Source: a virus
IMG/VR virus record: IMGVR_UViG_3300042894_006198
Span: 62,001-126,000 of that record
Length of the DNA: 64,000 bases
Direction: 5' to 3' (one strand)
The notes beneath the pieces are model-generated. The model was given only the letters and a program-made list of their open reading frames with translations, was not told the origin of the DNA and made no database searches. A program made the position numbers and the translations under genes. Positions 11,702 to 48,319 of this stretch are shown piece by piece. Numbering within the stretch: the first letter of the stretch is position 1; each line of letters begins with the position of its first letter.

Positions 11702-12010
11702 ATGGACACAAAAGAAATTATTCAGACAGTTAAGTATCGTTATGACCAACGATTACACAAAAATTTACTAGAAGAAAGATACAAAAACAAGTTACTTGTT
11801 ATCAATCAAACAGGTTATTGGTTTGCAAGTCAACAACTTATATCTTTTTTATCAATTGAGGCATTAGGCGAACAAGTTTATATTCAAGATGAATATAAAA
11901 ATATTATTTTAGTAAATCGCCAAGAACTACTAAGTGTTCTTATTGAAACGTATCGTACTGCCATGAAGCAATGGGCAATTGAACTTGAAGAATTAAAACA
12001 AGTACGATGA
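11702..12010 (+). CDS. Hypothetical protein, 102 aa
   Basis: Predicted mostly helical, with charged Lys/Glu residues at both ends and a central hydrophobic stretch around I-S-F-L-S-I-E-A-L-G. It overlaps the next gene by 4 nt, so it is probably co-transcribed and translationally coupled with the glycosyltransferase-like genes. Its position between fibre genes and modification genes would fit a small adaptor or assembly factor, but nothing in the sequence identifies a function. The start is set by a late-type promoter motif 5 nt upstream. Confidence 0.5.
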   Translation: MDTKEIIQTVKYRYDQRLHKNLLEERYKNKLLVINQTGYWFASQQLISFLSIEALGEQVYIQDEYKNIILVNRQELLSVLIETYRTAMKQWAIELEELKQVR

Positions 12011-12801
12011 ATCGTGGAATAGTTATTATAGCATTTGATACAGAATATCTTGAATATACAAAAATTGCAAGATTTTGTGCTAAACGTGCTAAAGAATTTT
12101 TAAAATTACCAATCACGTTAATTACGGACAAAGAATTCATTGATCCTAATGTAGACAATGTCATTTATACCAATAATGAAAGATATCAACATCGTACGTT
12201 TGGTACTGATTTACAAAAATGGCGTAATTTTAATCGTGCCGATGTGTACGATCTTAGCCCTTATGACCATACTTTATTAATTGATTGTGATTATGTTATT
12301 AATAGTGATCAATTAAATTCTTTGTGGGATTTAGATAAAAGTTTTCTTTGTCATGGTACAACAGCAGGAGTGACAAAATTTAGTAATAGTTTGATTGAAT
12401 CTTTAGGTCAATATGAATTAAACATGTGTTGGGCAACAGTTGTTATGTTTAAAAAAGATCAATTCAGTAAATCAATTTTTCACATGTGGAAAATGATACA
12501 GCAAAATTACATTTATTATGCAGCATTATTCAAATTTAATAATCAACTTTACAGAAATGATTATGCTTTAACCATTGCTTTAAATACTATGACGGGTCAC
12601 TTAGGATATGACGAGTTTTTAATTAAATACCCACTTATTAACATCTTTACTGATGTTGAAGTCAAACGTAATGAAGATGAATTTGAGTTTTATTATCAAA
12701 AAATGGTTGCTAGCACTCTCCGTCCTTACCGTGTAAAATTGTCAAACACTGATTTTCATTGTATGAACAAAAAAAGTTTATTGGAATTTATTAATGGATA
12801 A
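12007..12801 (+). CDS. Glycosyltransferase-like protein (GT-A fold, DxD)
   Basis: 264 residues. It starts G-I-V-I-I-A-F-D-T-E-Y, a strand that usually opens a nucleotide-sugar binding fold. It then carries L-L-I-D-C-D-Y-V-I-N near residue 95, a D-x-D-type metal/nucleotide-sugar motif, followed by hydrophobic and aromatic patches. This pattern is typical of retaining GT-A enzymes of the GT8-like type found in T4-like phages. Donor and acceptor are unknown; phage DNA, virion protein or host glycan are all possible. It overlaps both neighbours by a few bases and is a close structural partner of the next gene, so they probably act together. Confidence 0.55.
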   Translation: MNRGIVIIAFDTEYLEYTKIARFCAKRAKEFLKLPITLITDKEFIDPNVDNVIYTNNERYQHRTFGTDLQKWRNFNRADVYDLSPYDHTLLIDCDYVINSDQLNSLWDLDKSFLCHGTTAGVTKFSNSLIESLGQYELNMCWATVVMFKKDQFSKSIFHMWKMIQQNYIYYAALFKFNNQLYRNDYALTIALNTMTGHLGYDEFLIKYPLINIFTDVEVKRNEDEFEFYYQKMVASTLRPYRVKLSNTDFHCMNKKSLLEFING

Positions 12802-13609
12802 AGGCATTGTTATTGTAGCACAAAATAATACCACTACAGATTATGTAGCTTGTGCTAGGGTATTAGCAAAAAGTATTAAAAAAACGAACCCTAATTTATC
12901 AGTGTCAGTTATAACAAATAATATTAGTGAAGCCGATCATCCTATATTCGATTATATTATACCATTCCCATATGAAAATACTTCAACTGAAGAATGGAAA
13001 TTATCATATGATTGGCAAGTATATGAAGCTAGTCCATATGATGAGACTATAAAAATCGAAAGTGATGTATTAATTACAAGAGATATTTCAGATTGGTGGG
13101 AAATTTGTGGATCACGACAATTAGTAATAGCACAAGGGTGCATGGATTATAAAAATAAAGATTCAACTTCTAGGTTTTATCGTAATTTTTTTGACAAAAA
13201 TGAATTACCTGATGTGTATAATGGTTTGGTATATTTTAATAAAACAGACTTAGTTCAAAAATTTTTTATGATTATTAAAGATATCTATACTAATTGGGAA
13301 CAATACAGAGATGCATTAGCGTATTGTGCATCTAGTGAAACACCAACTAATGATATTGCTTATGCAATAGCCACCAATATTATTGGTGAAGAAAATGCAT
13401 TATTACCAAAATCTGTCAATCCTTTAAAATGGGTTCATATGAAACCAAGAATAATTAATGTAATGAGTAATGATTGGACAAGAGAATGTTTTTTTGAAAT
13501 ATTAAAGTGCGGACAAGTAAGGATTAATAGTTATACGCAATACTACCCAATTCATTATGTTTATAAAGATTTAGCTAAAAAGTTTGAAAAATATTATGAC
13601 AACGATTGA
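12794..13609 (+). CDS. Glycosyltransferase-like protein, second copy
   Basis: 271 residues with the same opening as the preceding protein (G-I-V-I-V-A-Q-N) and a sugar-nucleotide-like motif I-K-I-E-S-D-V-L-I-T near residue 93, where E-S-D replaces D-C-D. It contains many aromatic residues, and the second half (V-Y-N-G-L-V-Y-F-N-K-T) matches the acceptor side of GT-A folds. The two genes overlap by 8 nt, suggesting tandem duplication and coupled translation. The substituted DxD could weaken metal binding, so activity is less certain than for the first copy. Confidence 0.5.
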   Translation: MDKGIVIVAQNNTTTDYVACARVLAKSIKKTNPNLSVSVITNNISEADHPIFDYIIPFPYENTSTEEWKLSYDWQVYEASPYDETIKIESDVLITRDISDWWEICGSRQLVIAQGCMDYKNKDSTSRFYRNFFDKNELPDVYNGLVYFNKTDLVQKFFMIIKDIYTNWEQYRDALAYCASSETPTNDIAYAIATNIIGEENALLPKSVNPLKWVHMKPRIINVMSNDWTRECFFEILKCGQVRINSYTQYYPIHYVYKDLAKKFEKYYDND

Positions 13610-13952
13610 AGATATTATAAAAGCGTTTGCGTTATTAAAAGATACTCAGCCAATTACTTACGAGTACAGATTGTACTATGATGAAACCAATGGGTTACCA
13701 ATAAAATATTCAGTCGAAAAAGAGTACGGATCTTATATTACAATTAGCAAAAAAGATTATGATATAGCTAGTTTTTTAGTGCGAGTGGTAAATGGCAGAT
13801 TGATACATCCTGTTCACCCACGTTTTTTAATTATGCATGAATCAACAGGTGGATTTACTGTAGATCCGTATGATTGGACAGTATTAGTTGATCCTGAAGA
13901 ACCACATATCTTTATCGATAGCGTAAAGGTAGAAGACATTCAGAATGAGTGA
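13596..13952 (+). CDS. Hypothetical protein, 118 aa
   Basis: I chose the ATG at 13596 over an upstream TTG at 13584. It overlaps the preceding gene by 14 nt and the following gene by 8 nt, so it belongs to the modification operon. The protein is acidic with alternating Tyr/Asp/Val segments (Y-E-Y-R-L-Y-Y-D-E-T) and a proline-rich middle (H-P-V-H-P-R-F-L). No catalytic motif or membrane segment is visible. Role unknown. Confidence 0.5.
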   Translation: MTTIEDIIKAFALLKDTQPITYEYRLYYDETNGLPIKYSVEKEYGSYITISKKDYDIASFLVRVVNGRLIHPVHPRFLIMHESTGGFTVDPYDWTVLVDPEEPHIFIDSVKVEDIQNE

Positions 13953-14874
13953 ATCGATAATTGATGTTGCAGATTTAGATGTTATATACTTAAGCTATGA
14001 TGAACCACAAAAAGAAGAATTTTGGCTTAAGATTAAACATATGGTTCATTGGGCAAAACGTGTCGATAATGTTTATGGCAGTGATGCGGCTCATAAAGCA
14101 GCAGCCATAGTCAGCGAAACTGAAAGGTTTATTCTTATTGATGGTGATAATTTGCCTCACGAAGATTTTTTCAATCTACAGTTTACCATAGACGAATATA
14201 ATCACCAAGCACAATTTAGATGGCGAGCAAAAAACCATGTTAATAATTTATACTATGGTAATGGTGGTTTAAGTTCATGGACACGTGACTTTGTTCTTAA
14301 TATGAAAACACATGAAAATAGTTTAGGTGATACACGAACAAATATAGAATTTTGTTTTGATCCGTTATATTGGCCTATGCATGATTGCTATAGTACAACT
14401 TATATTAATTATACACCTAAGCAAGCATGGCGAGCAGGGTTTCGTGAAGGTGTAAAATTGTGTACACGTGGTGGTGAAATCCCCCCATCACCTAAAGAGT
14501 TTATTGAATACCTATGGCCTAAAAACTTAAAAAATTTATCAATATGGTATAACCTAGGTCGAGATGTTGAAAATGGTTGGTGGGCAATGTATGGTGCACG
14601 TATGGGTACCTATTACTTAATGTTAAGAGATTGGGATCATACATTAGTTCGTGATTTTAAATATTTAGATGAGCTATGGGTTGAAACAGCTTATTCAACT
14701 GAAGAAGATTGCATACGATTGGGTGAGATATTAAAACATGATCTCGGAATCGATATTGTTGAATTTAATGCAAAACAAAGTAAATTTTTTAAAGATTATA
14801 TTAGTAACAATTGGTTTAATCGTGGATGCATGGTAAAAGAAATTGATGTTATAAGAGAATTGGAGGGATGGTAA
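13945..14874 (+). CDS. GT-like protein with DGDN motif
   Basis: 309 residues. The N-terminal half has V-I-Y-L-S-Y-D-E-P, then a stretch with A-H-K-A-A-A (near residue 50) and F-I-L-I-D-G-D-N-L-P (near residue 70). This order (G/S-x-A-H-K-A-A then D-x-D) is typical of GT-A-type glycosyltransferases in large phages. The C-terminal half is Trp/Tyr-rich (W-R-A-G-F-R-E-G-V-K-L). The whole protein aligns segment by segment with residues 568-795 of the large repeat protein at 20118, where the D-G-D-N is lost. Likely the active member of the pair; substrate unknown. Confidence 0.5.
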   Translation: MSESIIDVADLDVIYLSYDEPQKEEFWLKIKHMVHWAKRVDNVYGSDAAHKAAAIVSETERFILIDGDNLPHEDFFNLQFTIDEYNHQAQFRWRAKNHVNNLYYGNGGLSSWTRDFVLNMKTHENSLGDTRTNIEFCFDPLYWPMHDCYSTTYINYTPKQAWRAGFREGVKLCTRGGEIPPSPKEFIEYLWPKNLKNLSIWYNLGRDVENGWWAMYGARMGTYYLMLRDWDHTLVRDFKYLDELWVETAYSTEEDCIRLGEILKHDLGIDIVEFNAKQSKFFKDYISNNWFNRGCMVKEIDVIRELEGW

Positions 14875-15569
14875 TGCATCATCGTATATGTATCATAGGC
14901 ATCCCACGATGCGGAAGCCAATATGCTGTAGAATTAATCAAGCACAATGTAAAACACAACTTTTTTGATTTGGTTGAGCCATATACACATAGTTTGCCAC
15001 AAATAAATATTGACGAAAACAAACAGCTTTTTATTGAACCTACTCAATTTAACATTGATTCACATGAGGAAAGAATAAAATATACAAGTCGTATGCTTAA
15101 AGAAGGAGATCAAAATCAACCTCTTATTATGCGATTGTTTTTAGTTTATGAAATTGAAAAAATGTTATTTGATGTAATATCAGATGTACAAAATTGTAAC
15201 TTTCAATTTGTTATATTAAGAAGAAAAAATATTGAACATCAAATATTAAGTATGGGAATAGCTGATGCTAGAAACCAATACACTTTATTTCATCACGACA
15301 AATATCCAACTGAACCTGTGATGGTTACAAATTATAAGTTAATGTCTTGGTTGTATAGAAATCATCTAATGTTTGAACAACGTGTTACTGAAAATGATAT
15401 TGAAGGTATACCGTTAACCTATGAAACCGCTGTAGAAGATTTAGCCAAAGTATTAGATCAACCCATAAATATTTGTTTACCAATCAAAAAACAAATCGTT
15501 ACTGATCCTTATGATCAAATTATTAACAAAGATGAAGTAAAAGCATTCATTCAAAGTTTAATTAAATGA
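14874..15569 (+). CDS. Sulfotransferase-like P-loop protein
   Basis: The start is the ATG at 14874, overlapping the previous stop as TAATG: a GGAGG box lies 7 nt upstream of it but only 1 nt from the alternative ATG at 14868. The N-terminal I-C-I-I-G-I-P-R-C-G-S-Q resembles the 5'-phosphosulfate loop of PAPS-dependent sulfotransferases. F-V-I-L-R-R-K-N-I-E-H-Q-I-L-S resembles the 3'-phosphate site. Length (231 aa) is normal for the short phage/bacterial versions. Such enzymes put sulfate on sugars or tyrosines. Within this cassette the acceptor could be the glycan made by the neighbouring transferases. The assignment rests on these two motifs. Confidence 0.55.
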   Translation: MHHRICIIGIPRCGSQYAVELIKHNVKHNFFDLVEPYTHSLPQINIDENKQLFIEPTQFNIDSHEERIKYTSRMLKEGDQNQPLIMRLFLVYEIEKMLFDVISDVQNCNFQFVILRRKNIEHQILSMGIADARNQYTLFHHDKYPTEPVMVTNYKLMSWLYRNHLMFEQRVTENDIEGIPLTYETAVEDLAKVLDQPINICLPIKKQIVTDPYDQIINKDEVKAFIQSLIK

Positions 15570-16519
15570 CCAAAAAGTATATTAAGTTAGTACACAATAA
15601 CCCTGATCATGAAAATTGGTTTGTGGTAAATTGGTGTATAGGTAATACATGCAACTATAGCTGCAGCTATTGTCCAAGTGGTTTACATGATGGTAGTAAA
15701 GCATGGCCTGATCCAAACACCGTTAAACAATTTATAGCACGTCTTGCTGAACAAACATTTCCTAAAAATCTTTATTTTGAATTTACAGGTGGAGAAGTTA
15801 CTCTATGGAAATACTTTACTGATATTTGCCAATTCTGTAAAGATCTTAATATTAAGATTGGCTTGATCAGTAATGGCAGCAGAACTATACGCTATTGGGA
15901 AGAAAATAAACATTACTTTGATCATATTTGTTTGTCATATCATCCTGAAGAAGCTAACTCAGAACACTTTGTCAATGTTGTAAAAACTGTGCACAAAGAG
16001 TTGCGAACTCATGTTAATATTATGATGAGTCCTGAAAAGTTTGACGAGTGTTATATTTTAGCTACTAAAATAAAAGAATTAGGTGATTTAAGCATTGCTT
16101 TACAGCCGTTGATACATGATTTTGGTGATACGCTATATGAATATACACCTGCTCAACATACTATTTTTGACAAGCAACACGAATTAATTGTAAAGCACAT
16201 TAAGTATACTAAAGACTTTCCATATTATCGTGGAGCTATGAGAAAAGTTTTTGAAGATGGCACATCAGAACCCATGTCAGCACAACGGTTTATCAACGAT
16301 AAAACAAACAATTGGCGAGATTGGGATTGTTATGCAGGGGTTGAACAAATTGTAGTAGATATGGATGGTCGTATTTTTAGAGGATGGTGTAAGGAAGGTG
16401 GATCGATAGGGCAAATCAATGATCCTAAATTAATGATACCTCAAGACCCAATCATTTGTAGCAAAACTATGTGCCATTGTAATTTTGATATTATGGCTAC
16501 TAAAGAATTAGTGGAATGA
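15566..16519 (+). CDS. Radical SAM protein, C-terminal auxiliary Fe-S domain
   Basis: 317 residues. C29-x3-C33-x2-C36 is the radical SAM cluster motif; T-G-G-E-V near residue 75 is the SAM-binding GGE motif. The last 70 residues carry W-R-D-W-D-C-Y-A-G-V-E, D-M-D-G-R-I-F-R-G-W-C and C-x4-C-H-C, which look like a SPASM/twitch-type auxiliary cluster domain. Enzymes with this layout often modify peptides or proteins. ATGA overlap with the sulfotransferase-like gene indicates coupling. The same auxiliary domain is N-terminal in the minus-strand gene at 19016-20071. Confidence 0.75.
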   Translation: MTKKYIKLVHNNPDHENWFVVNWCIGNTCNYSCSYCPSGLHDGSKAWPDPNTVKQFIARLAEQTFPKNLYFEFTGGEVTLWKYFTDICQFCKDLNIKIGLISNGSRTIRYWEENKHYFDHICLSYHPEEANSEHFVNVVKTVHKELRTHVNIMMSPEKFDECYILATKIKELGDLSIALQPLIHDFGDTLYEYTPAQHTIFDKQHELIVKHIKYTKDFPYYRGAMRKVFEDGTSEPMSAQRFINDKTNNWRDWDCYAGVEQIVVDMDGRIFRGWCKEGGSIGQINDPKLMIPQDPIICSKTMCHCNFDIMATKELVE

Positions 16520-17664
16520 GTAAATTTTGTATTTTACCATGGATTAATCTGACGATTGACGTTAATGGTAGCACAAGACCATGTTGTCGTTTTGAACAAC
16601 CACAACATCAAAATAAACACAAATTACCTTTCATTATGCAAGATAGGTTAGATAAGGTTTATAACAATGACAGTTGGCAACAATTACGCCAAGCATTTTT
16701 AAATGGTGAAAAACCAACGGAGTGTCGTTCATGTTGGGATGACGAAAAAAGTGGTATACCAAGCTATAGAGAAGTATTTGTACAATCAAAATTTGTGGAC
16801 GTAAGTAAAGTTGATGTAAATTCTTTAACTGTAGAAGCACCATTAACATTAGATTTAAAACTTAACAATGTATGCAATTTAAAATGTAGAATATGTAGTC
16901 CACAACAATCATCAACCTATGCTAAAGAATTTAAACTGTTATATAATATTACCTACCCTAATGCTGATTATTATCCACAAGATAAAATAACTAATACTCA
17001 ACACGAAGAAGTTATAGCAAAATGGGGAGAAACTGTTCAACATATTGAAATGTCAGGTGGCGAACCCATGAATAGCCCCGAAAATGTAAAAGTGTTAAAA
17101 TTAATTAATGAAAAAAGTGATCTTAAAAATAAAACTATACTAATTAATACAAATGTTACAAAATGGAATAAACAGCTAATTGATTATCTTACCATGTTCA
17201 AAAAATCTATTATTTGTTTAAGTGTCGATGATTTATACGATAGACAAGAATACCACAGATTCCCTAGTAAATGGGACAATATTATTGAAAATATTGATAA
17301 ATTTATAGCATTACGTGATGAATTCCCTAATGTAGAGTTATTATTGTTTTGCACAGTAAGCAACTTTAACGTATATTATGTTCCTGAATATAAAGTATGG
17401 GCTGATAGTAAAAAATTACCTGTACATTGGAACATGTTACATTCTAACCCAAAATATTGTATACATAATTTACCAACATTAGCAAAGTCAAGAGTAAAAG
17501 ATAAACTAACAGATTTTCCTGATATTGTAAACTTTATGATGTTGCCACAAGAAGATGAACATTGGCAAGAATTTATTGATGAGTTAGAAATTCTTGATGA
17601 GCATCGTGGACAGAATTTTGATGAAACATTTGCTGAGTGGAGCGAAATAATTGGTAGGTATTAA
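16516..17664 (+). CDS. Radical SAM protein, N-terminal twitch domain
   Basis: 382 residues. The N-terminus (F-C-I-L-P-W-I-N-L, D-V-N-G, R-P-C-C-R at residues 4-25, and C70-x2-C73) matches the N-terminal twitch domain I know from 'twitch domain-containing radical SAM proteins'. The core cluster motif is C120-x3-C124-x2-C127, with S-G-G-E-P at about residue 185. ATGA overlap with the preceding radical SAM gene suggests co-translation. The reaction is unknown. It ends 4 bases inside the oppositely oriented gene at 17661. Confidence 0.75.
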   Translation: MSKFCILPWINLTIDVNGSTRPCCRFEQPQHQNKHKLPFIMQDRLDKVYNNDSWQQLRQAFLNGEKPTECRSCWDDEKSGIPSYREVFVQSKFVDVSKVDVNSLTVEAPLTLDLKLNNVCNLKCRICSPQQSSTYAKEFKLLYNITYPNADYYPQDKITNTQHEEVIAKWGETVQHIEMSGGEPMNSPENVKVLKLINEKSDLKNKTILINTNVTKWNKQLIDYLTMFKKSIICLSVDDLYDRQEYHRFPSKWDNIIENIDKFIALRDEFPNVELLLFCTVSNFNVYYVPEYKVWADSKKLPVHWNMLHSNPKYCIHNLPTLAKSRVKDKLTDFPDIVNFMMLPQEDEHWQEFIDELEILDEHRGQNFDETFAEWSEIIGRY

Positions 17665-19019
17665 CCATCTAACCAAACTTTAAATTCAGGAAATGTTTTA
17701 AGAAAATTAGTATTTCTTCTATCATCTAATTCAGTAAAAAATACAAAAACTTCCTCACCCTTATCGAACATGTTAAAGATATTTTGGTTCTTTTTAATTG
17801 CGTCTTGTGTTTGTTTTAAAAAGAAAAGAAATTCTTTCCATACATTAATAACTGATTGCCCTTCAAATTGTGGATCATTAATAAGTTCATTAAAGATTTG
17901 CAATGGTTGATCAAGATATGCTGCATATTCTCTAGGTGCAATAGTTGGACTTTGTTCTTTAGGCCAAGTTACAATATTACGATGAATATCAATAGGGTAA
18001 TATTTTTTACAACATGCTGCAAAATATTCAACATACTTATAAAATGATGGCAATCCTAACAAGTTTAAACATGGCATAAAATTGATTTTGACTAAGTCAG
18101 GTTTTGAAAGTAAGGTTTCTAAATTGTTTTTAAATCGATCCCATTTTACACCGTAGCGAATATATTCTAATTCTTCGCCAATATTTTCACCGCTTACTTG
18201 TACAATGACATTAAAGTATTGATTTAATATAGGTAAATAATTTAAAAACTTATTAAAATAAGATGGTGGCGTATTCATGTTGGTTGTAATGCATAACTCA
18301 ATTTTATCAACAGTGGTATCGTTTGACAAATTAATTGTAGGTTCACGCACTGTATTGCTATGAATTTCAATAAGTTTATCTAAACATTCATATAATAAAT
18401 CAGTTATTAACGGTTCGCCACCTATAAAACCAAACCTAGTTAAATGTTTAATGCCTGTTGTTTTATACCATTCCCAAAATAATTTTTCAGCTTCTTTTTT
18501 ACGTTCGCCCAATTGACTTGTATCTCTTGTCATAGGTATATTATATTTTTTCTTTTCTGCATACCATTGTGTACTATAATGTTCGCTACAGTAAGTACAT
18601 TTTGCGTCACATGTATTATTCAAAACTATTTCAATAATACTAGCATACGTGCTACGGGTAAGATTTGGAATGTTTTTTAGATCCTCTTTGTTTTGTGGCT
18701 CAAATCCTGTATTACGTTCCATATATTTTTCAAACATGTAATCATTTCTAGAGCTTTCAAACCCCTTATTTTCAAGTTGCCAACATGTATGACAATCATT
18801 ATGTTGCACGTTTGATAATAAGCTTTTACGTCTTTCTACATGTTCAGGTAGATTACTAAACAAATCTTGCCCTAATGATTTGCACATTTCATCTGTAATA
18901 CGTGTGCGTTTTAATGTTCTGCAGCAATAAGTAAAACTTGGTTCACTTATATAAAACATGAGATAATCCCAAGCATAACGACACAATGTGTCAGGACGTT
19001 GAGGATAAATGGGAATCAT
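17661..19019 (-). CDS. Radical SAM protein, twitch type, minus strand
   Basis: 452 residues. N-terminal cysteines C13, C32-C33, C76 and C79 form a twitch-like auxiliary domain (F-T-Y-C-C-R, D-C-H-T-C-W). The core has C137-x3-C141-x2-C144 and G-G-E-P near residue 200. It is encoded opposite to the previous two genes and overlaps the downstream minus-strand gene start by 4 nt (ATGA-type), so the two minus-strand radical SAM genes form their own short operon. The long C-terminal region is helical and without further cysteine clusters. Substrate unknown. Confidence 0.75.
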   Translation of the reverse strand: MIPIYPQRPDTLCRYAWDYLMFYISEPSFTYCCRTLKRTRITDEMCKSLGQDLFSNLPEHVERRKSLLSNVQHNDCHTCWQLENKGFESSRNDYMFEKYMERNTGFEPQNKEDLKNIPNLTRSTYASIIEIVLNNTCDAKCTYCSEHYSTQWYAEKKKYNIPMTRDTSQLGERKKEAEKLFWEWYKTTGIKHLTRFGFIGGEPLITDLLYECLDKLIEIHSNTVREPTINLSNDTTVDKIELCITTNMNTPPSYFNKFLNYLPILNQYFNVIVQVSGENIGEELEYIRYGVKWDRFKNNLETLLSKPDLVKINFMPCLNLLGLPSFYKYVEYFAACCKKYYPIDIHRNIVTWPKEQSPTIAPREYAAYLDQPLQIFNELINDPQFEGQSVINVWKEFLFFLKQTQDAIKKNQNIFNMFDKGEEVFVFFTELDDRRNTNFLKTFPEFKVWLDG

Positions 19020-20071
19020 TTACGGTCACCAAATAATACGTAATGTTCAGGTGCGTATCCTTCCATAATTTCAGCACCACTATCATCTTCAGGTATAGAA
19101 AACTTATTATTCATGCTACCCCGTATAGGAACAATTGCCCATGTACATAATTCTTTGAACATAGGTATTTGTTTTAATTCTTCTTCCAAACTTAATGTTT
19201 CCTCGACGTATTGTGGTGGCATCATAAATTTTACTTCTAGGTGACCTATGTTCTGATTATTGTTTTTTACTTTTTCATCTGTGATAGCTTCTACTACTTT
19301 TACAAATTTTGCACGATCATAAAATTCAAAGTGCACTGATAAGTTCAAATTGCCATAATGAATAATTTCACGATAGTATTCAGGTTTACGTGAGCCATTA
19401 CTATGTAAGCTTATATGATGACCAAAAGCGTTTAAATATCGTAACCAATCTAAAAAGTCTTTATTGGTAGTAGGTTCACCACCACTTATAATAAAGTTTA
19501 CACTTTCACCGTTCATGAATTTTTCTTCAAGTAAATTTGTAGCTTTAATTAAGTCAGCTAATGGTTTATGTGGGTCAGTATTATTGTGTATCCAAGGCCA
19601 ACAGTACGAACAATCATAATTACATCTTCTACCAATTTCCCAATAAATTTGTTTTTGGCTGCTTGCATGAGTACGTTCCATAGCAACAAATTCATTCATG
19701 GTTGGTTTATTTTTTTCCATGATAGTTGGTAATTCTTGACTTTGGCGCAGTAAAATGATTTGTTTTTCATTAACTGCTTTGGGGATAAACAAGTCTGCCC
19801 CACAACTACATACGTTTTTTGTACAATCAATCCATTCTGTAGGTACGTCAAATGTGTCCCATACACTGCCTAGTTTACCACCTACACGGCAACTTGCTGT
19901 CCATACGCCACCATCCATATCGATGAATAAGCTATCAACACCTGCGCCACATTTCCACCCTGTTAAGTAGTTTAGTTTTGCGCCAACAAGTTCATCTGTA
20001 CTCCAATCTCTCCAATGACCCATTTCATTATAGGTTCGTATAGGTTTTCCCGCTGTTTTGTGTAATGTCAT
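19016..20071 (-). CDS. Radical SAM protein with N-terminal auxiliary Fe-S domain
   Basis: I start it at the ATG at 20071, because an exact TATAAATA late promoter lies between this ATG and an upstream one at 20095. 351 residues. Residues 18-100 carry W-R-D-W, C41-G-A-G-V, D-M-D-G-G-V-W-T-A-S-C61, C83, C88-x-C90. This is the same motif series as the C-terminal domain of the radical SAM protein at 15566. The core follows with C150-x3-C154-x2-C157 and S-G-G-E-P near residue 195. The relative order of the two domains is therefore swapped. Likely a peptide or protein modifying enzyme; partner unknown. Confidence 0.75.
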   Translation of the reverse strand: MTLHKTAGKPIRTYNEMGHWRDWSTDELVGAKLNYLTGWKCGAGVDSLFIDMDGGVWTASCRVGGKLGSVWDTFDVPTEWIDCTKNVCSCGADLFIPKAVNEKQIILLRQSQELPTIMEKNKPTMNEFVAMERTHASSQKQIYWEIGRRCNYDCSYCWPWIHNNTDPHKPLADLIKATNLLEEKFMNGESVNFIISGGEPTTNKDFLDWLRYLNAFGHHISLHSNGSRKPEYYREIIHYGNLNLSVHFEFYDRAKFVKVVEAITDEKVKNNNQNIGHLEVKFMMPPQYVEETLSLEEELKQIPMFKELCTWAIVPIRGSMNNKFSIPEDDSGAEIMEGYAPEHYVLFGDRK

Positions 20072-20079
20072 AGTAGGAT

Positions 20080-20087
20080 TATTTATA
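20080..20087 (-). promoter_or_regulatory. T4-late promoter TATAAATA, minus strand
   Basis: Exact match to the T4 late consensus, reading leftward, 8 nt before the ATG at 20071. With the plus-strand motif at 20106 it forms a back-to-back late promoter pair for the two divergent transcripts. Confidence 0.55.
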
Positions 20088-20105
20088 AAGAACAATGTTT
20101 GTTAC

Positions 20106-20117: not shown

Positions 20118-22505
20118 ATGGATGAAGAATATGAAATTGATCGTCGATATGAATTATGGCAACGTGGATATTGGGATATACCTAAAGATTTAGACACAAG
20201 TCAATTTAATTTTGATTGGCGACCTGATCCATACGATAAACCTTACACTCATGTTTTTGGTACACAATGGCAACCAAGTGGTGGACCACGCTTTGTTATT
20301 CCTGAAAGCATTGGGTATAAGTTTCAAAACAGTCAAATTGCTAAAAAACTACCAACAAAAAATAATTGGATTATACCTGATTCATTTAGTGGACAATTTG
20401 ATTATAGTTGGCATTATGATGAATTTATTGAGGCTATACATTATGAATGGAAATGTGGCGTAAAGTATGTACATCCTGATGGCATTGATACTATTTACTT
20501 AACTGAATATGATAATATCACGCCACCAATTTATGGTAAATTTTTAAGTGATGACATTGATCATTTAGTTGAAAAACAAATTAATAATTTTTGGGTACTT
20601 AATCCCTATTGTTCTTACAACCGATTTGATTTTGTATGGAAACCAAAAAGAATTGCAGAGTTACGTTATGTTAATGTTTTTGGTAACCAACATAGTCAAG
20701 ATTTAGGCATTAAATTTATAAATGTTGAAATGTACAAACGTGGGTACAAAGACTTAAACTATGTCAACAATGTAAACTTTTTCCTTGATACTAAATTGGA
20801 TATGTTTTATATCGATCATAGTAATAGTACATCAGAAATTAATTTTAATAATCTTAAATCAAGATATCCAAAAATTACTAAAGTCAGGTTTTTTGATAAT
20901 TGGGTAGACACTATTACAAGATGCGTAAGAAAAGCTACAACGCATCTTATTTGGATTGTCAATAGTTATTATGATTATACTAATTTTCAATTTGATTATT
21001 ATCCTGCACCATGGGATATGACCAATACACATGTATTTGGTACACAATGGAATGCATGGGGTAAAACTTTTTTAATTAACTGTAATCAATGGGACTTAGT
21101 TAAAAATGTCCAAGAAGTTGAAAATATACAACCAATTAAACTAATTGATAAAAAAGCAGAAATTAAAAATTGTAAATATGATAAATTACTGATTGATTTT
21201 GGTAATGAGCATAACTTAGATGCAACCTATACAGTACCTTATCAAGGTAGTTTTTTAAGCACGATTGATTATTGGTTAAAAAAAGAAAAGTATGTAACTA
21301 GTAAAAAGAATTATAAAGTGTGGGTTGTTAGCAGTATATGTGATTATGACAAGTTTGATTTTACTTACGAACCATTACCCTTTGATGAAAAACAATTACA
21401 TGTTTTTGCTACACAGTTTGATAATCAAAAAATACAATATGGTGATACGTTTTTATTAGATGTGAATGAGTTTGTTATAGTAAGATCTCTTTTTGATAAA
21501 CTTGAAGATTATACCTCAAATCTCAAGTTCGTTGATACATTAAACGTAAAACGGATGCAACATCCTGTAATATTACATGATTATGATTGTCATATTGACG
21601 CTATAAATTTACCTACAGAACCATTCCCTTATATTCAATTGCAAAACAATCAAGTAAAACATCTTGAACCAATAAATATGTGGGAATTTCCAACAATCAA
21701 AACTAATAATGATTCTACTTCAGTTTACGTGCCTACTCATGCACTATCTTATATGACAAAAGATTTATATGATTATGAACATGTTGTTAAACCTGTTCAA
21801 TTTTATGGTGGAGAACCGCTAGATATTGTTTACATTAGTAATGGTGAACCTAAAGCTGAGCAACACTATGAACATTTACAGGAAATTGTAACTAAAAAAG
21901 GTGCAAAAAATAGAATTATTAGAGTACAAGATGTAGTGGGTAGAGTTGCTGCTTATCATGCTGCTGCAAATATTAGTACAACAAGATGGTTTTTTGCAGT
22001 GTTTGCTAAGTTGCGAGTTAATCCAACTTTTGATTGGGGTTGGCAACCTGACCGTTTAAAAACACCACGTCACTATATTTTTACAGCTATTAATCCTGTT
22101 AACCGTTTGAACTATGGTCATCAAGCTATCATTGCTTATAACAAGAAATTAGTATTAGGTAACAATGGAATAGGATTAGATTTTACAATGGACAGCGATC
22201 ATGAAGTTGTCAACATGAATAGTGGTATAGCTATGTACAATACGGATTCGTGGACAACATGGAGAACTGCATTTCGTGAAGCAATTAAATTGCGTGATTT
22301 AGTTGATAAGGGTATTGACAACGATGCTGCTTATCGTTTAGAACGTTGGTGTAATGTAGGTATTGGCGAGTATGCAGCAGATAGTCAACGTGGTGCTGTA
22401 GATGGTATAGCTTATTGGGAAGAAGTTAATGGCGACTTTGATAAGTTAAAATTAAGTTATGATTGGGCTTGGTTGCGTAAAAGGTTTGAAATTAGATATA
22501 AATGA
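20118..22505 (+). CDS. Large HVFGTQ-repeat protein with GT-like C-terminus
   Basis: 795 residues from the ATG at 20118. It contains five copies of a 20-25 residue motif, F-x-F-x-[WY]-x-P-x-[PR]-[YWF]-D..H-V-F-[GA]-T-Q, near residues 30-51, 169-191, 290-311, 413-434 and (diverged) 638-660, spaced about 120-200 residues apart. Residues 568-795 align with the 309-aa GT-like protein at 13945 (V-Y-I-S-N-G-E-P; A-A-Y-H-A-A-A; W-R-T-A-F-R-E-A-I-K-L), but the D-G-D-N is replaced, so the catalytic site looks lost. Aromatic-rich repeats suggest carbohydrate or surface binding. No signal peptide. Function unknown; it may scaffold the modification enzymes encoded next to it. Confidence 0.6.
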   Translation: MDEEYEIDRRYELWQRGYWDIPKDLDTSQFNFDWRPDPYDKPYTHVFGTQWQPSGGPRFVIPESIGYKFQNSQIAKKLPTKNNWIIPDSFSGQFDYSWHYDEFIEAIHYEWKCGVKYVHPDGIDTIYLTEYDNITPPIYGKFLSDDIDHLVEKQINNFWVLNPYCSYNRFDFVWKPKRIAELRYVNVFGNQHSQDLGIKFINVEMYKRGYKDLNYVNNVNFFLDTKLDMFYIDHSNSTSEINFNNLKSRYPKITKVRFFDNWVDTITRCVRKATTHLIWIVNSYYDYTNFQFDYYPAPWDMTNTHVFGTQWNAWGKTFLINCNQWDLVKNVQEVENIQPIKLIDKKAEIKNCKYDKLLIDFGNEHNLDATYTVPYQGSFLSTIDYWLKKEKYVTSKKNYKVWVVSSICDYDKFDFTYEPLPFDEKQLHVFATQFDNQKIQYGDTFLLDVNEFVIVRSLFDKLEDYTSNLKFVDTLNVKRMQHPVILHDYDCHIDAINLPTEPFPYIQLQNNQVKHLEPINMWEFPTIKTNNDSTSVYVPTHALSYMTKDLYDYEHVVKPVQFYGGEPLDIVYISNGEPKAEQHYEHLQEIVTKKGAKNRIIRVQDVVGRVAAYHAAANISTTRWFFAVFAKLRVNPTFDWGWQPDRLKTPRHYIFTAINPVNRLNYGHQAIIAYNKKLVLGNNGIGLDFTMDSDHEVVNMNSGIAMYNTDSWTTWRTAFREAIKLRDLVDKGIDNDAAYRLERWCNVGIGEYAADSQRGAVDGIAYWEEVNGDFDKLKLSYDWAWLRKRFEIRYK

Positions 22506-23158: not shown

Positions 23159-24289
23159 ATGAAATTTACAAAACGAACACTTGTGCATACTGCACTAGCT
23201 GCAATGACTGCTTTGGCTTTGGCAGGTTGTGGCAAAAAAGAAGAAGCCAAAGCACCTGCTGCTGAAGCACCTAAATCAGCAGAACCTTTAAAAATTGGAT
23301 TTATATATGTAGGTCCTGTTGGTGATGCAGGATGGACATTTGCTCATGACAATGGTCGTAAACATATTGAAGCTAAATTTGGTGATAAAATTAAAACTAC
23401 GTTTGTTGAGAAAGTACCTGAAGGTGCTGATGCTGAGCGTGTTATTCGTGATTTAGTTGGTCAAGGTAATAAATTAATCTTCGCAACATCATTTGGTTTT
23501 GGTGATGCAATGGAAAAAGTAGCCAAAGACCATCCTGACGTAAAGTTTGAACATGCTACAGGATATAAAACAGCAGAAAATCTACGAGTATATGAAGCAA
23601 GATTTTACGAAGATGCTTACATGGCAGGTATTGTAGCAGGTAGTATGACAAAAACTAATACATTAGGATTTGTTGCTAGTTTCCCAATTCCTGAAGTATT
23701 GCGTAATATTAATGCGTTTACTCTAGGTGCACGTAGTGTTAATCCTAAAGTTACTACCAAAGTTGTATGGGTGAATACATGGTTTGACCCACCAAAAGAG
23801 GGCGAATCAGCACAAGCATTAATTAACCAAAAAGCTGACGTATTGTTACAAAATACTGATTCTACTGCGGTATTATTAACTGCTGAGAAAAATAATAAGT
23901 ATGCTTTTGGTTGGGATAGTGATATGAGCGCATTTGCTCCAAAAGCACACTTAGGTTCAGCCATTGTAAATTGGGGACCATACTACGAAAAAGCTGTCAA
24001 TGATGTATTAGGTGGTACGTGGAAAACAAGTGACACTAAATGGGGTACTAAAGAAGGTACTAATGATTTAGTAAAGATTAATGATGTTGTATCTGATGCT
24101 GCTAAGAAAAAGGTTGATGAAGTCAAAGCAGGGTTAAAGGCAGGTACATTCCATGTGTTCAAAGGACCACTCAAAGACAACACAGGTAAAGTTGTATTGG
24201 AAAAAGATGTGGTTGGTGATGATGCATGGAAAGGTAAAATTAATTTCTACATTGAAGGTGTAGAGGGCAAAGTACCATCAGGTAAGTAA
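23159..24289 (+). CDS. BMP/PnrA-type ABC transporter substrate-binding lipoprotein
   Basis: 376 residues. A lipoprotein signal ends L-A-G-C with Cys24, followed by an Ala/Lys/Glu-rich linker. The mature domain opens K-I-G-F-I-Y-V-G-P-V-G-D-A-G-W, the start of BMP family periplasmic binding proteins. Later conserved features are Y-M-A-G-I-V-A-G and G-W-D-S-D-M. BMP proteins bind purine nucleosides or related small molecules for ABC uptake. No permease or ATPase gene is adjacent, so it would have to work with a host transporter or act alone. AAAGGAAA ribosome site. Unusual cargo for a phage and probably host-derived. Confidence 0.8.
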   Translation: MKFTKRTLVHTALAAMTALALAGCGKKEEAKAPAAEAPKSAEPLKIGFIYVGPVGDAGWTFAHDNGRKHIEAKFGDKIKTTFVEKVPEGADAERVIRDLVGQGNKLIFATSFGFGDAMEKVAKDHPDVKFEHATGYKTAENLRVYEARFYEDAYMAGIVAGSMTKTNTLGFVASFPIPEVLRNINAFTLGARSVNPKVTTKVVWVNTWFDPPKEGESAQALINQKADVLLQNTDSTAVLLTAEKNNKYAFGWDSDMSAFAPKAHLGSAIVNWGPYYEKAVNDVLGGTWKTSDTKWGTKEGTNDLVKINDVVSDAAKKKVDEVKAGLKAGTFHVFKGPLKDNTGKVVLEKDVVGDDAWKGKINFYIEGVEGKVPSGK

Positions 24290-24489: not shown

Positions 24490-24639
24490 ATGAAAACAAT
24501 AACTAAAGATGATGTTTATATTGGGGTTTTTGTAGTATCAATGATATTAATTGGCATATTTTTTGACATTGGACCCGTTTGTATGACAGGATGGAACCCA
24601 ATGTTAGGTGAATGTTCTGATATCGTTAAAACTAAATAA
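24490..24639 (+). CDS. Small membrane protein, 49 aa
   Basis: ATG at 24490, 6 nt after the previous stop. One hydrophobic helix (I-G-V-F-V-V-S-M-I-L-I-G-I-F-F) is followed by a Cys-containing loop (V-C-M-T-G-W-N-P-M-L-G-E-C). It resembles the tiny membrane proteins common in large phages. Role unknown. Confidence 0.45.
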   Translation: MKTITKDDVYIGVFVVSMILIGIFFDIGPVCMTGWNPMLGECSDIVKTK

Positions 24640-24649
24640 TAGTATTGTT

Positions 24650-24706
24650 GTATGAAGTTGAAGGAAAAGTGCTGCGGACGGGGCTTCGATGCCCCCTGGT
24701 CCACCA
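24650..24706 (+). ncRNA. ssrA: tmRNA acceptor piece (permuted ssrA)
   Basis: The left part of a circularly permuted tmRNA gene. The T-arm-like hairpin GGGGC-TTCGAT-GCCCC (24680-24695) is followed by CTGGTCC and the encoded ACCA end at 24706. CTGGTCC pairs with GGGCCAG at 24774-24780 in the coding piece as a 7-bp acceptor stem. A G3-U70-type pair at the third position, the alanine identity element, is conserved. The 5' boundary (24650) is approximate. The T-loop reads as 6 nt here, one shorter than usual, which deserves a check. Confidence 0.85.
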
Positions 24707-24773
24707 AGTATGCTAGTCCGGTAGCAATAGTGTGAGTGACTACTGTCTTGTGCGAGTCAAGACCATACCTGCT
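24707..24773 (+). other. tmRNA intervening segment
   Basis: The stretch between the acceptor end (CCA) and the start of the coding piece. In permuted tmRNAs this segment is removed after transcription, giving two RNA pieces held together by pairing. No gene is seen in it. Confidence 0.6.
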
Positions 24774-24938
24774 GGGCCAGACATGGTTTCGACGGGGTAA
24801 CAAGTACGGATATGGACAACACGATAGGCGATGATCGTTAATCAAGCAAAACAAATAGACGCAAACGATGAAACATTTGCTCTAGCTGCCTAAACAAAGG
24901 TAAGCGGGGGTAGGAAATACCTAGCAACAGGAAATACC
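24774..24938 (+). ncRNA. ssrA: tmRNA coding piece with tag ANDETFALAA
   Basis: It begins GGGCCAG-ACATGG-TTTCGACGGGG, the conserved tmRNA 5' region. The tag frame is 24861-24893: GCA AAC GAT GAA ACA TTT GCT CTA GCT GCC TAA, giving A-N-D-E-T-F-A-L-A-A. That tag and the permuted order are typical of betaproteobacterial and some other tmRNAs, where the system rescues stalled ribosomes and tags the truncated products for degradation. The exact 3' end is uncertain. Confidence 0.85.
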
Positions 24939-24964
24939 ATTAGGGGCAATGCCCCTAATTTTTT
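24939..24964 (+). terminator. Rho-independent terminator after tmRNA
   Basis: 9-bp stem ATTAGGGGC/GCCCCTAAT with loop AAT, followed by TTTTT. The GGGGC-AAT-GCCCC core is nearly the same as in the porin terminator near 33270. Confidence 0.8.
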
Positions 24965-24996
24965 ATTATGTTTTGTTTTTACGTAAAGTGGTATTG

Positions 24997-46600: not shown

Positions 46601-48319
46601 ATGGCAGAACCTAATCCATCAAATGTAGCACCTTGGTATTTACGTAATATTAATCAAGCACTTGCTTTAGACTCAACTACGGGCAATGTATATGTTCGCA
46701 CTGATGCTAATATAAGTTTTGGCAATGCAAACCTAACAATTGGAAATGTAGGTATCACAAGTTTAGGTAATGTGGTAATAAGTGGTAATACATTACCTGT
46801 TACTGTAAGTGGTGGAAATTTAAACGCTAATGTTACAGGTAGTACTGTATCATTAAGTGGTAACTTAGCGGGTATTACAGGTAATGTAACCATTGTTGAT
46901 GGTGGTGGAAGCATTACAATAGATGGTACAGTTGGTATTAGTGGTAATGTCAATATTGGCACAATGCCTAATGTAAACGCTTCAATTTCAGGAAATGTTA
47001 ATATTGGTACAATGCCTGAAATTGAAATTAAAAATGATTCAGGTAATCCCATACCTGTATCAAAAGATACCAATGTTAATAGTGTAACTAATCCACTTTA
47101 TGTAGAGGGAGTAAACAATGCAAGTTTTTTTGCTCCAACACAAAGTGATAGTTTTGGTAGATTGCGTGTAAGTAATCCACAAACATTATTTGATACACAA
47201 AGTAGATATTACAACCATAATCAGTTTGCTAGTAATGTAGCAGGCGCAGGTACATATACATTTGATAGCAACAGTAGCACATTTGCTATGGCAGTCAATA
47301 CCGCTAGCGGTGATAAAGTATATGCAGAAACATACAAAGTTTTCCCTTATCAGCCAGGTAAGAGTTTACTAATTTATTCATCATTCTGTATGAATATTGC
47401 TAAACCTAATCTACGCCAACGTGTGGGTTATTTTAGTAGTCAAAATGGCATCTACTTTGAACAAAGTGACAGCACATTATATATGGTTATTCGTAGTTAT
47501 AGTTCAGGTAGTGTAGTAGAAACTAGAGTAGCACAAAGTAGTTGGAATGGTGATCCATTAAATGGCCTTGGACCGAGCGGTATTGAATTGAACCCCGCAG
47601 TAGACCAAATCTTTTTCTGTGATATTGAATGGCTAGGTGTAGGTAGTGTTCGTACAGGATTCATCATTGGTGGTCAATATATTGTTGTGCATACATTTGA
47701 ACATGCTAATATAGCAGGTAATACTACAACTTATATGAGTACTGGTAGTTTACCACTAAGATTTGAAATTGAAAACACAGGTACAGCAAGTAGTTCTAGC
47801 ACACTAAGACAAATTTGTAGTACAGTAATTAGTGAAGGTGGTTACTCATTGTCAGGAACACCTAGAAGTATTGGACATAATTTAGGTACTCCTGTACGAT
47901 TGCCTAATGACCAAAGTTTTCTACCATTGTTAAGCATAAGGTTATTAAGCACTCGTCCTGATAGCATTGTATTGCCTACATTCTTTACCATAGCACCCGT
48001 AGCACAAAGTACATTTAAGTACCGTATATATAGTAGAGCAGTTACTACTGGTGGAACATGGACCAGTATCGGAGCATCAAGTCCTATTGAATACAATTTA
48101 GCACCTACTGCGGTCAGTAGTGGAGAAATTGTTACTGAAGGATTCATCATGTCAAGTAACCAAACTGCGGCAGCTCCCAGTCAGGAATCATTTGGTTTTG
48201 AAGTTCAACTACAAAGACAGCCTTTTACTAATGTAATGTACGAATATGTAATGACAGCCGCAACTATTGGTACTAACCAAGATGTTTATGCAAGTATTGA
48301 ATGGCAAGAAGTCAATTAA
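46601..48319 (+). CDS. Putative virion structural protein, 572 aa
   Basis: The N-terminal 170 residues contain short Gly/Asn/Val repeats (S-G-N-V-N-I-G-T-M-P occurs twice). D-S-F-G-R-L-R-V-S-N-P-Q-T-L-F-D-T-Q marks the conserved C-terminal part of a virion protein family of T4-like phages (F-G-R-L-R-V-S-x-P-x-T-L-F-D). The rest is beta-rich with aromatic and Ser-rich repeats. Late-type promoter upstream. Fibre, whisker or decoration protein; exact place in the virion unknown. Confidence 0.65.
   Translation: MAEPNPSNVAPWYLRNINQALALDSTTGNVYVRTDANISFGNANLTIGNVGITSLGNVVISGNTLPVTVSGGNLNANVTGSTVSLSGNLAGITGNVTIVDGGGSITIDGTVGISGNVNIGTMPNVNASISGNVNIGTMPEIEIKNDSGNPIPVSKDTNVNSVTNPLYVEGVNNASFFAPTQSDSFGRLRVSNPQTLFDTQSRYYNHNQFASNVAGAGTYTFDSNSSTFAMAVNTASGDKVYAETYKVFPYQPGKSLLIYSSFCMNIAKPNLRQRVGYFSSQNGIYFEQSDSTLYMVIRSYSSGSVVETRVAQSSWNGDPLNGLGPSGIELNPAVDQIFFCDIEWLGVGSVRTGFIIGGQYIVVHTFEHANIAGNTTTYMSTGSLPLRFEIENTGTASSSSTLRQICSTVISEGGYSLSGTPRSIGHNLGTPVRLPNDQSFLPLLSIRLLSTRPDSIVLPTFFTIAPVAQSTFKYRIYSRAVTTGGTWTSIGASSPIEYNLAPTAVSSGEIVTEGFIMSSNQTAAAPSQESFGFEVQLQRQPFTNVMYEYVMTAATIGTNQDVYASIEWQEVN

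What the first reader, a model, noticed from the sequence alone, without database searches (positions are those of the whole stretch)
15566..20071. Four radical SAM genes in a convergent block, two with the auxiliary domain on opposite ends
Seen: CxxxCxxC cores in four adjacent genes; two plus-strand genes converge on two minus-strand genes (4-nt overlap at 17661-17664). The 15566 protein has a Cys-rich auxiliary domain (W-R-D-W, C-x-A-G-V, D-M-D-G, C, C-x-C) at its C-terminus; the 19016 protein has the same motif series at its N-terminus. The other two carry N-terminal twitch-type Cys sets. The swapped order suggests a permutation or fusion of the same module and cooperating enzymes. Four together, next to glycosyltransferases and a sulfotransferase-like gene, is an arrangement I do not know as a described phage system.
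Basis: partly seen in the sequence, partly recalled or inferred. Interest (0 to 1): 0.72.

Follow-up and report, generated by a model that had tools for sequence, protein, structure and literature searches.

The report
Phage radical-SAM cluster with domain-swapped pair
This virus of aquatic bacteria carries four adjacent radical-SAM enzyme genes, two of which are the same two-part enzyme built in opposite order, and the pair is conserved in dozens of uncultured phages next to tail-fibre and sugar-transfer genes, so it probably builds unusual chemical groups on a glycan, most likely one on the virus particle.

Summary
Four gapless, overlapping radical SAM (rSAM) genes A, B (+) and C, D (-) lie at 15566-20071. 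A (rSAM + C-terminal aux domain) and D (aux + rSAM) are the same two modules in opposite order: hhalign aux/aux E 1e-22 with all five Cys in register, rSAM/rSAM E 1.5e-25, and matching predicted secondary structure. D is monophyletic in both domain trees among proteins that otherwise have the A order, which fits one permutation. B and C belong to a different, known family (N-terminal twitch, NF033640).

The A/D pair is widespread in uncultured aquatic phages. It is either tandem (A then D) or convergent, bracketing a variable cassette of rSAM, sulfotransferase-like, methyltransferase-like and nucleotide-sugar genes, downstream of fibre and glycosyltransferase genes. A is fused to a glycosyltransferase-like domain in some phages. 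D has a T4-type late promoter motif (14/37 exact matches against about 0.15 expected).

Best reading: a late-expressed glycan-tailoring module, probably decorating the virion. Substrate and chemistry are inferred.

rSAM-rich modules in T4-related phages are already described (CP220/CPt10, a TARA genome, pelagimyophages). New here are the permuted pair, its conservation and bracketing layout, the fusion and the late promoter.

The parts
15566..16519 (+). Gene A: rSAM domain (about res 1-215) followed by C-terminal five-Cys auxiliary domain (about res 222-317)
   Evidence: PF04055 E 2.4e-9; 46-sequence alignment with all rSAM and aux Cys invariant; AF2 pLDDT 91.9; best PDB fold matches BlsE, EpeE, viperin, anSME
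16516..17664 (+). Gene B: N-terminal twitch/SPASM radical SAM protein (NF033640 family)
   Evidence: NF033640 300.9 bits against cut-off 170, PF13186 at 5-74
17661..19019 (-). Gene C: second N-terminal twitch radical SAM protein (NF033640 family)
   Evidence: NF033640 215.7 bits against cut-off 170; Pfam Radical_SAM below cut-off
19016..20071 (-). Gene D: N-terminal five-Cys auxiliary domain (about res 16-111, numbered from the TTG at 20095) then rSAM domain (about 133-345); permuted counterpart of A
   Evidence: hhalign of both domains against A; 43-sequence alignment; AF2 pLDDT 87.3; domain trees
20080..20087 (-). T4-type late promoter motif TATAAATA directly upstream of D
   Evidence: 3 copies in window against 14.4 expected, all intergenic by the predicted starts; 14 of 37 distinct D upstreams have it against about 0.4% per comparable stretch
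14868..15569 (+). Sulfotransferase-like P-loop protein (PRCGSQY motif), overlaps A by 4 nt
   Evidence: no Pfam, NCBIfam or PDB hit; homologous to families with PRSGSTWL (c81) and PRTGSTWL (c34) by hhalign
13945..14874 (+). Glycosyltransferase-like protein h5 with a conserved DGD (DxD-like) motif; same domain is fused to A in other phages
   Evidence: alignment D66/D68 at least 90% conserved; fusion proteins of 754-941 aa; no Pfam family above cut-off
12007..12801 (+). GT8-like glycosyltransferase 1
   Evidence: same protein cluster as 12794; joint profile matches glycogenin E 3e-4
12794..13609 (+). GT8-like glycosyltransferase 2
   Evidence: phrog_1903 E 1e-11; joint profile matches glycogenin
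20118..22505 (+). Divergent neighbour: repeat protein with a C-terminal domain related to h5 (ATG at 20118)
   Evidence: BLASTP h5 against 20058 ORF E 5e-11; sequence

Best explanation
A and D form the conserved core of a late-expressed phage glycan-tailoring module. Each is a twitch-type rSAM enzyme: the CxxxCxxC cluster cleaves SAM to a 5'-deoxyadenosyl radical that abstracts H from a sugar (or glycosylated acceptor), and the five-Cys aux domain carries an auxiliary Fe-S cluster that anchors substrate or takes up an electron. D is a permuted copy of the same enzyme and would act at a second position or step. B and C (N-twitch rSAM) and the exchangeable neighbours (sulfotransferase-like, methyltransferase-like, carbamoyltransferase, NDP-sugar dehydrogenase, cytidylyltransferase, B12-rSAM) add further decorations, and the adjacent GT-A-like enzymes transfer the sugar. 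Because A/B sit in the fibre gene string and D has a T4-type late promoter motif, the most likely target is a glycan on a tail-fibre or baseplate protein. Shown: gene anatomy, homology, permutation, conservation, fusion, late-promoter motif. Inferred: substrate, chemistry, virion target.
For: rSAM and aux Cys invariant in 46 A and 43 D sequences. A fused to the GT-like h5 domain in contigs behind L072/073, L076/078, L080 and L085/088. Conserved order fibre-h7-gt-gt-h13-h5-(ST)-A. Interior genes and neighbours include carbamoyltransferase, NDP-sugar dehydrogenase, cytidylyltransferase/cupin, B12-rSAM and sulfotransferase-like families. A's fold matches include sugar-acting BlsE, DesII, AbmM, SpeY and BtrN. 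NATAAATA sites also precede virion structural genes in the window, e.g. 46571 before 46601 and 49912 before 49940. 14/37 exact TATAAATA before D; motif as T4/cyanophage late promoter (PMC2984593). No uncovered base in the block for a precursor peptide gene.
Against: Peptide-acting enzymes (EpeE, anSME, SuiB, SkfB) match A's fold about as well as sugar-acting ones. The h5 family has no Pfam match above cut-off. Virion and host-surface targets are not separated by any result here. A few A-bearing records have no detectable D. The predicted D transcript in the window would be almost leaderless.
Confidence: 0.42

Rival explanations
1. The same enzymes modify the host surface glycan (LPS O-chain or capsule) during infection, changing the receptor to exclude competing phages or to stop progeny being adsorbed to debris.
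For: Proposed for glycosyltransferases in the pelagimyophage host-recognition cluster, where rSAM cassettes also occur (PMC7029224); tailoring genes resemble those of bacterial polysaccharide loci.
Against: Late promoter motif on D and location in the fibre gene string favour virion assembly timing. No flippase, polymerase or ligase was recognised among the neighbours I read.
Confidence: 0.22
2. The rSAM proteins directly modify amino-acid side chains of a virion protein (a RiPP-maturase-like system acting on fibres), for example epimerising, cross-linking or oxidising residues.
For: Twitch/SPASM rSAM enzymes often act on peptides; EpeE, anSME, SuiB and SkfB are among the best fold matches; fibre genes lie upstream.
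Against: No precursor peptide gene fits in the block; the accessory genes are sugar-type; A is fused to a GT-like domain.
Confidence: 0.18
3. They make a soluble metabolite or nucleotide product (auxiliary metabolism, viperin-like nucleotide chemistry, or DNA-base modification) unrelated to virion or envelope.
For: rSAM cores show weak similarity to viperin and QueE.
Against: Those matches cover the rSAM core, not the aux domain; neighbours are GTs and tailoring enzymes. PADLOC was not searched.
Confidence: 0.1
4. D arose by independent fusion of an aux domain to another rSAM domain, not by permutation of an A-like gene.
For: Trees are small, single-method and midpoint rooted; the aux domain gives only about 80 columns.
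Against: Both D domains group as one clade each, next to A and the paralogues, with the same internal grouping; secondary-structure elements match with a constant offset of 206 residues in the aux domain.
Confidence: 0.08

Closest known systems
Multi-rSAM modules of Campylobacter phages CP220/CPt10 (Timms 2010, PMC2853527) and CP21
   Same: T4-related phages with 11-12 rSAM genes and an interchangeable module of five; CP21_027 is a distant A-like protein with a Cys-rich C-terminus
   Different: No member of the D family found in the CP21 stretch read; A is only 23% identical; different neighbours
rSAM gene cassettes in the host recognition cluster of pelagimyophages (PMC7029224) and the 12-rSAM TARA T4-like genome (PMC5332604)
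   Same: Aquatic T4-like phages; hypervariable fibre region with glycosyltransferases and rSAM genes in the former
   Different: The passages read give no domain architecture, no A/D pair and no mechanism
NF033640 N-terminal twitch radical SAM proteins
   Same: B and C are members over cut-off; N-terminal aux domain
   Different: D also has an N-terminal aux domain but of another family (hhalign D aux/B aux prob 2.7%) and scores only 24.6 bits against the cut-off of 170
BlsE, BtrN/SpeY, DesII and EpeE (solved twitch/SPASM-type rSAM enzymes)
   Same: Predicted fold of A: partial TIM barrel plus C-terminal aux domain
   Different: 11-17% identity; D has the two domains in reverse order; substrates cannot be transferred
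STM4011 family rSAM (NF038073) and prokaryotic viperin (NF038283)
   Same: Closest NCBIfam models for A's rSAM core (E 1e-16)
   Different: About 60 bits, far below cut-offs of 200 and 180

Membership tests
Radical SAM superfamily | CxxxCxxC motif in a Radical_SAM domain | tested here: met
   Motif in all four; A, B, D over Pfam cut-off, C via NF033640
Radical SAM superfamily | [4Fe-4S] cluster and reductive SAM cleavage | not testable with these tools
   needs purified protein
SPASM/twitch subgroup (A, D) | Auxiliary Cys-rich domain beside the rSAM core | tested here: met
   Five invariant Cys in each; fold matches of A to SPASM/twitch enzymes; PF13186 itself not matched in A or D
SPASM/twitch subgroup (D) | Canonical C-terminal position of the aux domain | tested here: not met
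   Met by A; D has it at the N-terminus
NF033640 N_Twi_rSAM | Score over curated cut-off 170 | tested here: met
   B 300.9, C 215.7 bits; A and D do not meet it (16.2 and 24.6)
RiPP maturase system | Precursor peptide gene next to the maturase | tested here: not met
   No uncovered base in the window block; at most 35 nt in five other blocks; a distant or structural-protein substrate is not excluded
Prokaryotic viperin | NF038283 score over 180 | tested here: not met
   A 59.8, D 41.9 bits
Multi-rSAM module of T4-related phages (CP220-like / HRC cassettes) | Several rSAM genes in an exchangeable block near fibre genes | tested here: met
   1-15 rSAM matches per related record; variable interior between A and D
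T4-type late transcription | NATAAATA upstream of the gene | tested here: met
T4-type late transcription | gp55/gp33 homologues and late transcripts | not tested
   not searched; no RNA data

The most novel reading that the evidence does not exclude
A and D are a mirror-order enzyme pair, rSAM-aux plus aux-rSAM, that works as a two-enzyme complex on one glycan. D would be a permuted twitch rSAM family that I found no description of, and the pair would be the fixed core of a phage system that installs radical-made sugar modifications on virions while the enzymes between them are swapped.
Probability: 0.25. Interest if true: 0.75.

Novelty: new variant of a known kind. Interest (0 to 1): 0.52.

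Why it matters
rSAM-rich phages have been noted since 2010 with no function assigned in the papers read. A conserved, domain-permuted pair with a late promoter motif and a glycosyltransferase-like fusion gives a concrete, testable hypothesis (radical chemistry on virion or envelope glycans) and a defined enzyme pair to express. It is also a natural example of a domain-order swap in a radical SAM enzyme, useful for asking how the auxiliary cluster must sit relative to the active site.

Tried and rejected
tblastn of A, C, D and h5 against 50,697 phage records gave no match at the limits used; A at E up to 5 gave CP21 as best, 7e-5. PDB sequence search for h5 and ST gave nothing useful. Long A matches in some loci looked like introns or inserts but are A followed by D's aux domain. 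A small-ORF search for precursor peptides found no ORF in gaps and the script then stopped with an error; one search replaced it by measuring uncovered bases. Coordinates of the AF2 models were not available, so superposition was replaced by profile alignment and secondary-structure offsets. WRDW as a shared motif was rejected (not in register).

Full report
The observation. The four ORFs stand at the stated coordinates: A 15566-16519 (+), B 16516-17664 (+), C 17661-19019 (-) and D 19016-20071 (-). Neighbouring genes overlap by 4 nt and the block has no uncovered base. All four have CxxxCxxC. A, B and D exceed Pfam's Radical_SAM cut-off; C exceeds only that of NF033640. The 158-kb record has just these four Radical_SAM matches.

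The two auxiliary domains. I cut the A and D families into domains and compared profiles. A's C-terminal and D's N-terminal domains align over 74 columns with probability 99.5 and E 1e-22, all five cysteines in register (C-x19-C-x22-C-x4-C-x-C in A, one residue fewer in the middle spacer of D). The rSAM cores align with E 1.5e-25. Neither aux domain resembles the N-terminal twitch domain of B (prob below 3%). AlphaFold models are confident (pLDDT 91.9 and 87.3). The aux secondary-structure elements of A and D correspond with an offset of 206 residues (e.g. strands 234-237/28-31, helix 239-244/33-38, strands 261-264/55-58, 269-271/63-65, 280-283/74-77), and each core has the strands of a six-stranded partial barrel.

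Permutation. Related phages carry further A-order paralogues elsewhere in their genomes. In separate trees of the rSAM and the aux domain, D proteins (including divergent 32-41% identical and 415-417 aa forms) are one clade (support 0.98 and 0.90) with the same main internal groups, while A and the paralogues with a detected aux domain have the order rSAM-aux. One order swap at the base of D, from an rSAM-aux ancestor, is the simplest account. Trees are small (36-37 rows) and midpoint rooted.

Distribution. IMG/VR scans gave 50 loci for D and 80 (of 86) for A; these lists contain redundant contigs. A, C and D have no match in cultured phage records at E 1e-5, and D hits only one GTDB contig, in a Bdellovibrionaceae MAG, where A precedes D. 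Searching 49 whole viral records (my reading of a truncated list), A and D are both present in about 38. The five with D only have it within about 7 kb of a contig end on the cassette side. Four records with A well inside the contig show no clear D. There are two layouts. In the tandem layout A is directly followed by D, mostly within a few bases. In the convergent layout A and D point at each other and bracket 2 to about 20 kb of other genes; this holds for all 19 such records I read and for the window. The interior varies: N-twitch rSAM genes, B12-binding rSAM proteins of about 700 aa, sulfotransferase-like, methyltransferase-like, NDP-sugar dehydrogenase and other genes. Carbamoyltransferase and cytidylyltransferase genes lie beside it or in it. 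Records have 1 to 15 rSAM matches.

Links to glycan work. Upstream of A the order fibre, h7, two GT8-like genes, h13, h5 is widely kept. The GT profile matches glycogenin at E 3e-4. h5 has a conserved DGD motif but no Pfam family above cut-off, so its GT-A nature is inference. In contigs behind L072/073, L076/078, L080 and L085/088, an h5-like domain is fused to a complete A (63-66% identical), in proteins of 754-941 aa. The 14868 gene matches no library, but its family aligns with two families carrying PRSGSTWL or PRTGSTWL, a sulfotransferase-type 5'-phosphosulfate-binding motif by my knowledge. The methyltransferase-like label for the families c16, c30 and c42 is my reading of their sequences, not a database match.

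Timing. TATAAATA occurs three times in the window against 14.4 expected, once directly before D. In 37 distinct D upstreams, 14 have it within 90 nt, where about 0.15 would be expected from the density in the same loci, and many others have NATAAATA. In the window NATAAATA also precedes virion structural genes at 46601 and 49940. T4 uses TATAAATA and the cyanophage S-PM2 NATAAATA as late promoters (PMC2984593). A has no exact TATAAATA near its start (0 of 79 A loci); A and B overlap the fibre-side gene string, so they probably read through from it. No gp55 search and no RNA data support this.

Function. A's best fold match is BlsE, a cytosylglucuronate decarboxylase, with sugar- and peptide-acting enzymes following; D's matches are weaker and mostly confined to the core. 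I conclude that A and D most likely act on a sugar or glycosylated acceptor made by the adjacent transferases, late in infection, hence most likely on the virion. Probability: about 0.6 for glycan tailoring of any kind, 0.42 for the virion version.

Known background. CP220 and CPt10 carry 11 and 12 rSAM proteins and an interchangeable block of five (PMC2853527). A TARA T4-like genome has 12 (PMC5332604). Pelagimyophage host-recognition clusters differ by rSAM cassettes (PMC7029224). A paper search for circular permutation with radical SAM found no description, within the limits of that library. So the kind is known and the permuted, bracketing A/D pair is the new part.

Noticed in passing
24615-24984: tmRNA gene with tag ANDETFALAA in the phage record.
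   Followed up: no
23159-24289: BMP-family-like ABC-transporter lipoprotein (by my reading of the sequence) next to the rSAM block, 88-92% identical in four related contigs.
   Followed up: no
20118-22505: Protein with repeated modules (F-D-x-x-P-x-P-x-D ... H-V-F-G/A-T-Q) and a C-terminal h5-like domain that seems to lack the DxD motif in this phage.
   Followed up: partly
L121 (record G045), whole 92-kb record: Fifteen Radical_SAM matches in one 92-kb viral record, more than the 11-12 reported for CP220/CPt10.
   Followed up: no
L134:3141-5230: A and D in tandem on a contig binned in a Bdellovibrionaceae MAG; may be a phage contig and hint at a host.
   Followed up: partly
window, 17 sites: ATAAATA is depleted in the window (17 against 47 expected), consistent with selection against stray late promoters.
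   Followed up: partly
L136:10711-28078: Vibrio phage K566 has four annotated rSAM genes plus further N-twitch-like ORFs, some in a convergent block.
   Followed up: no
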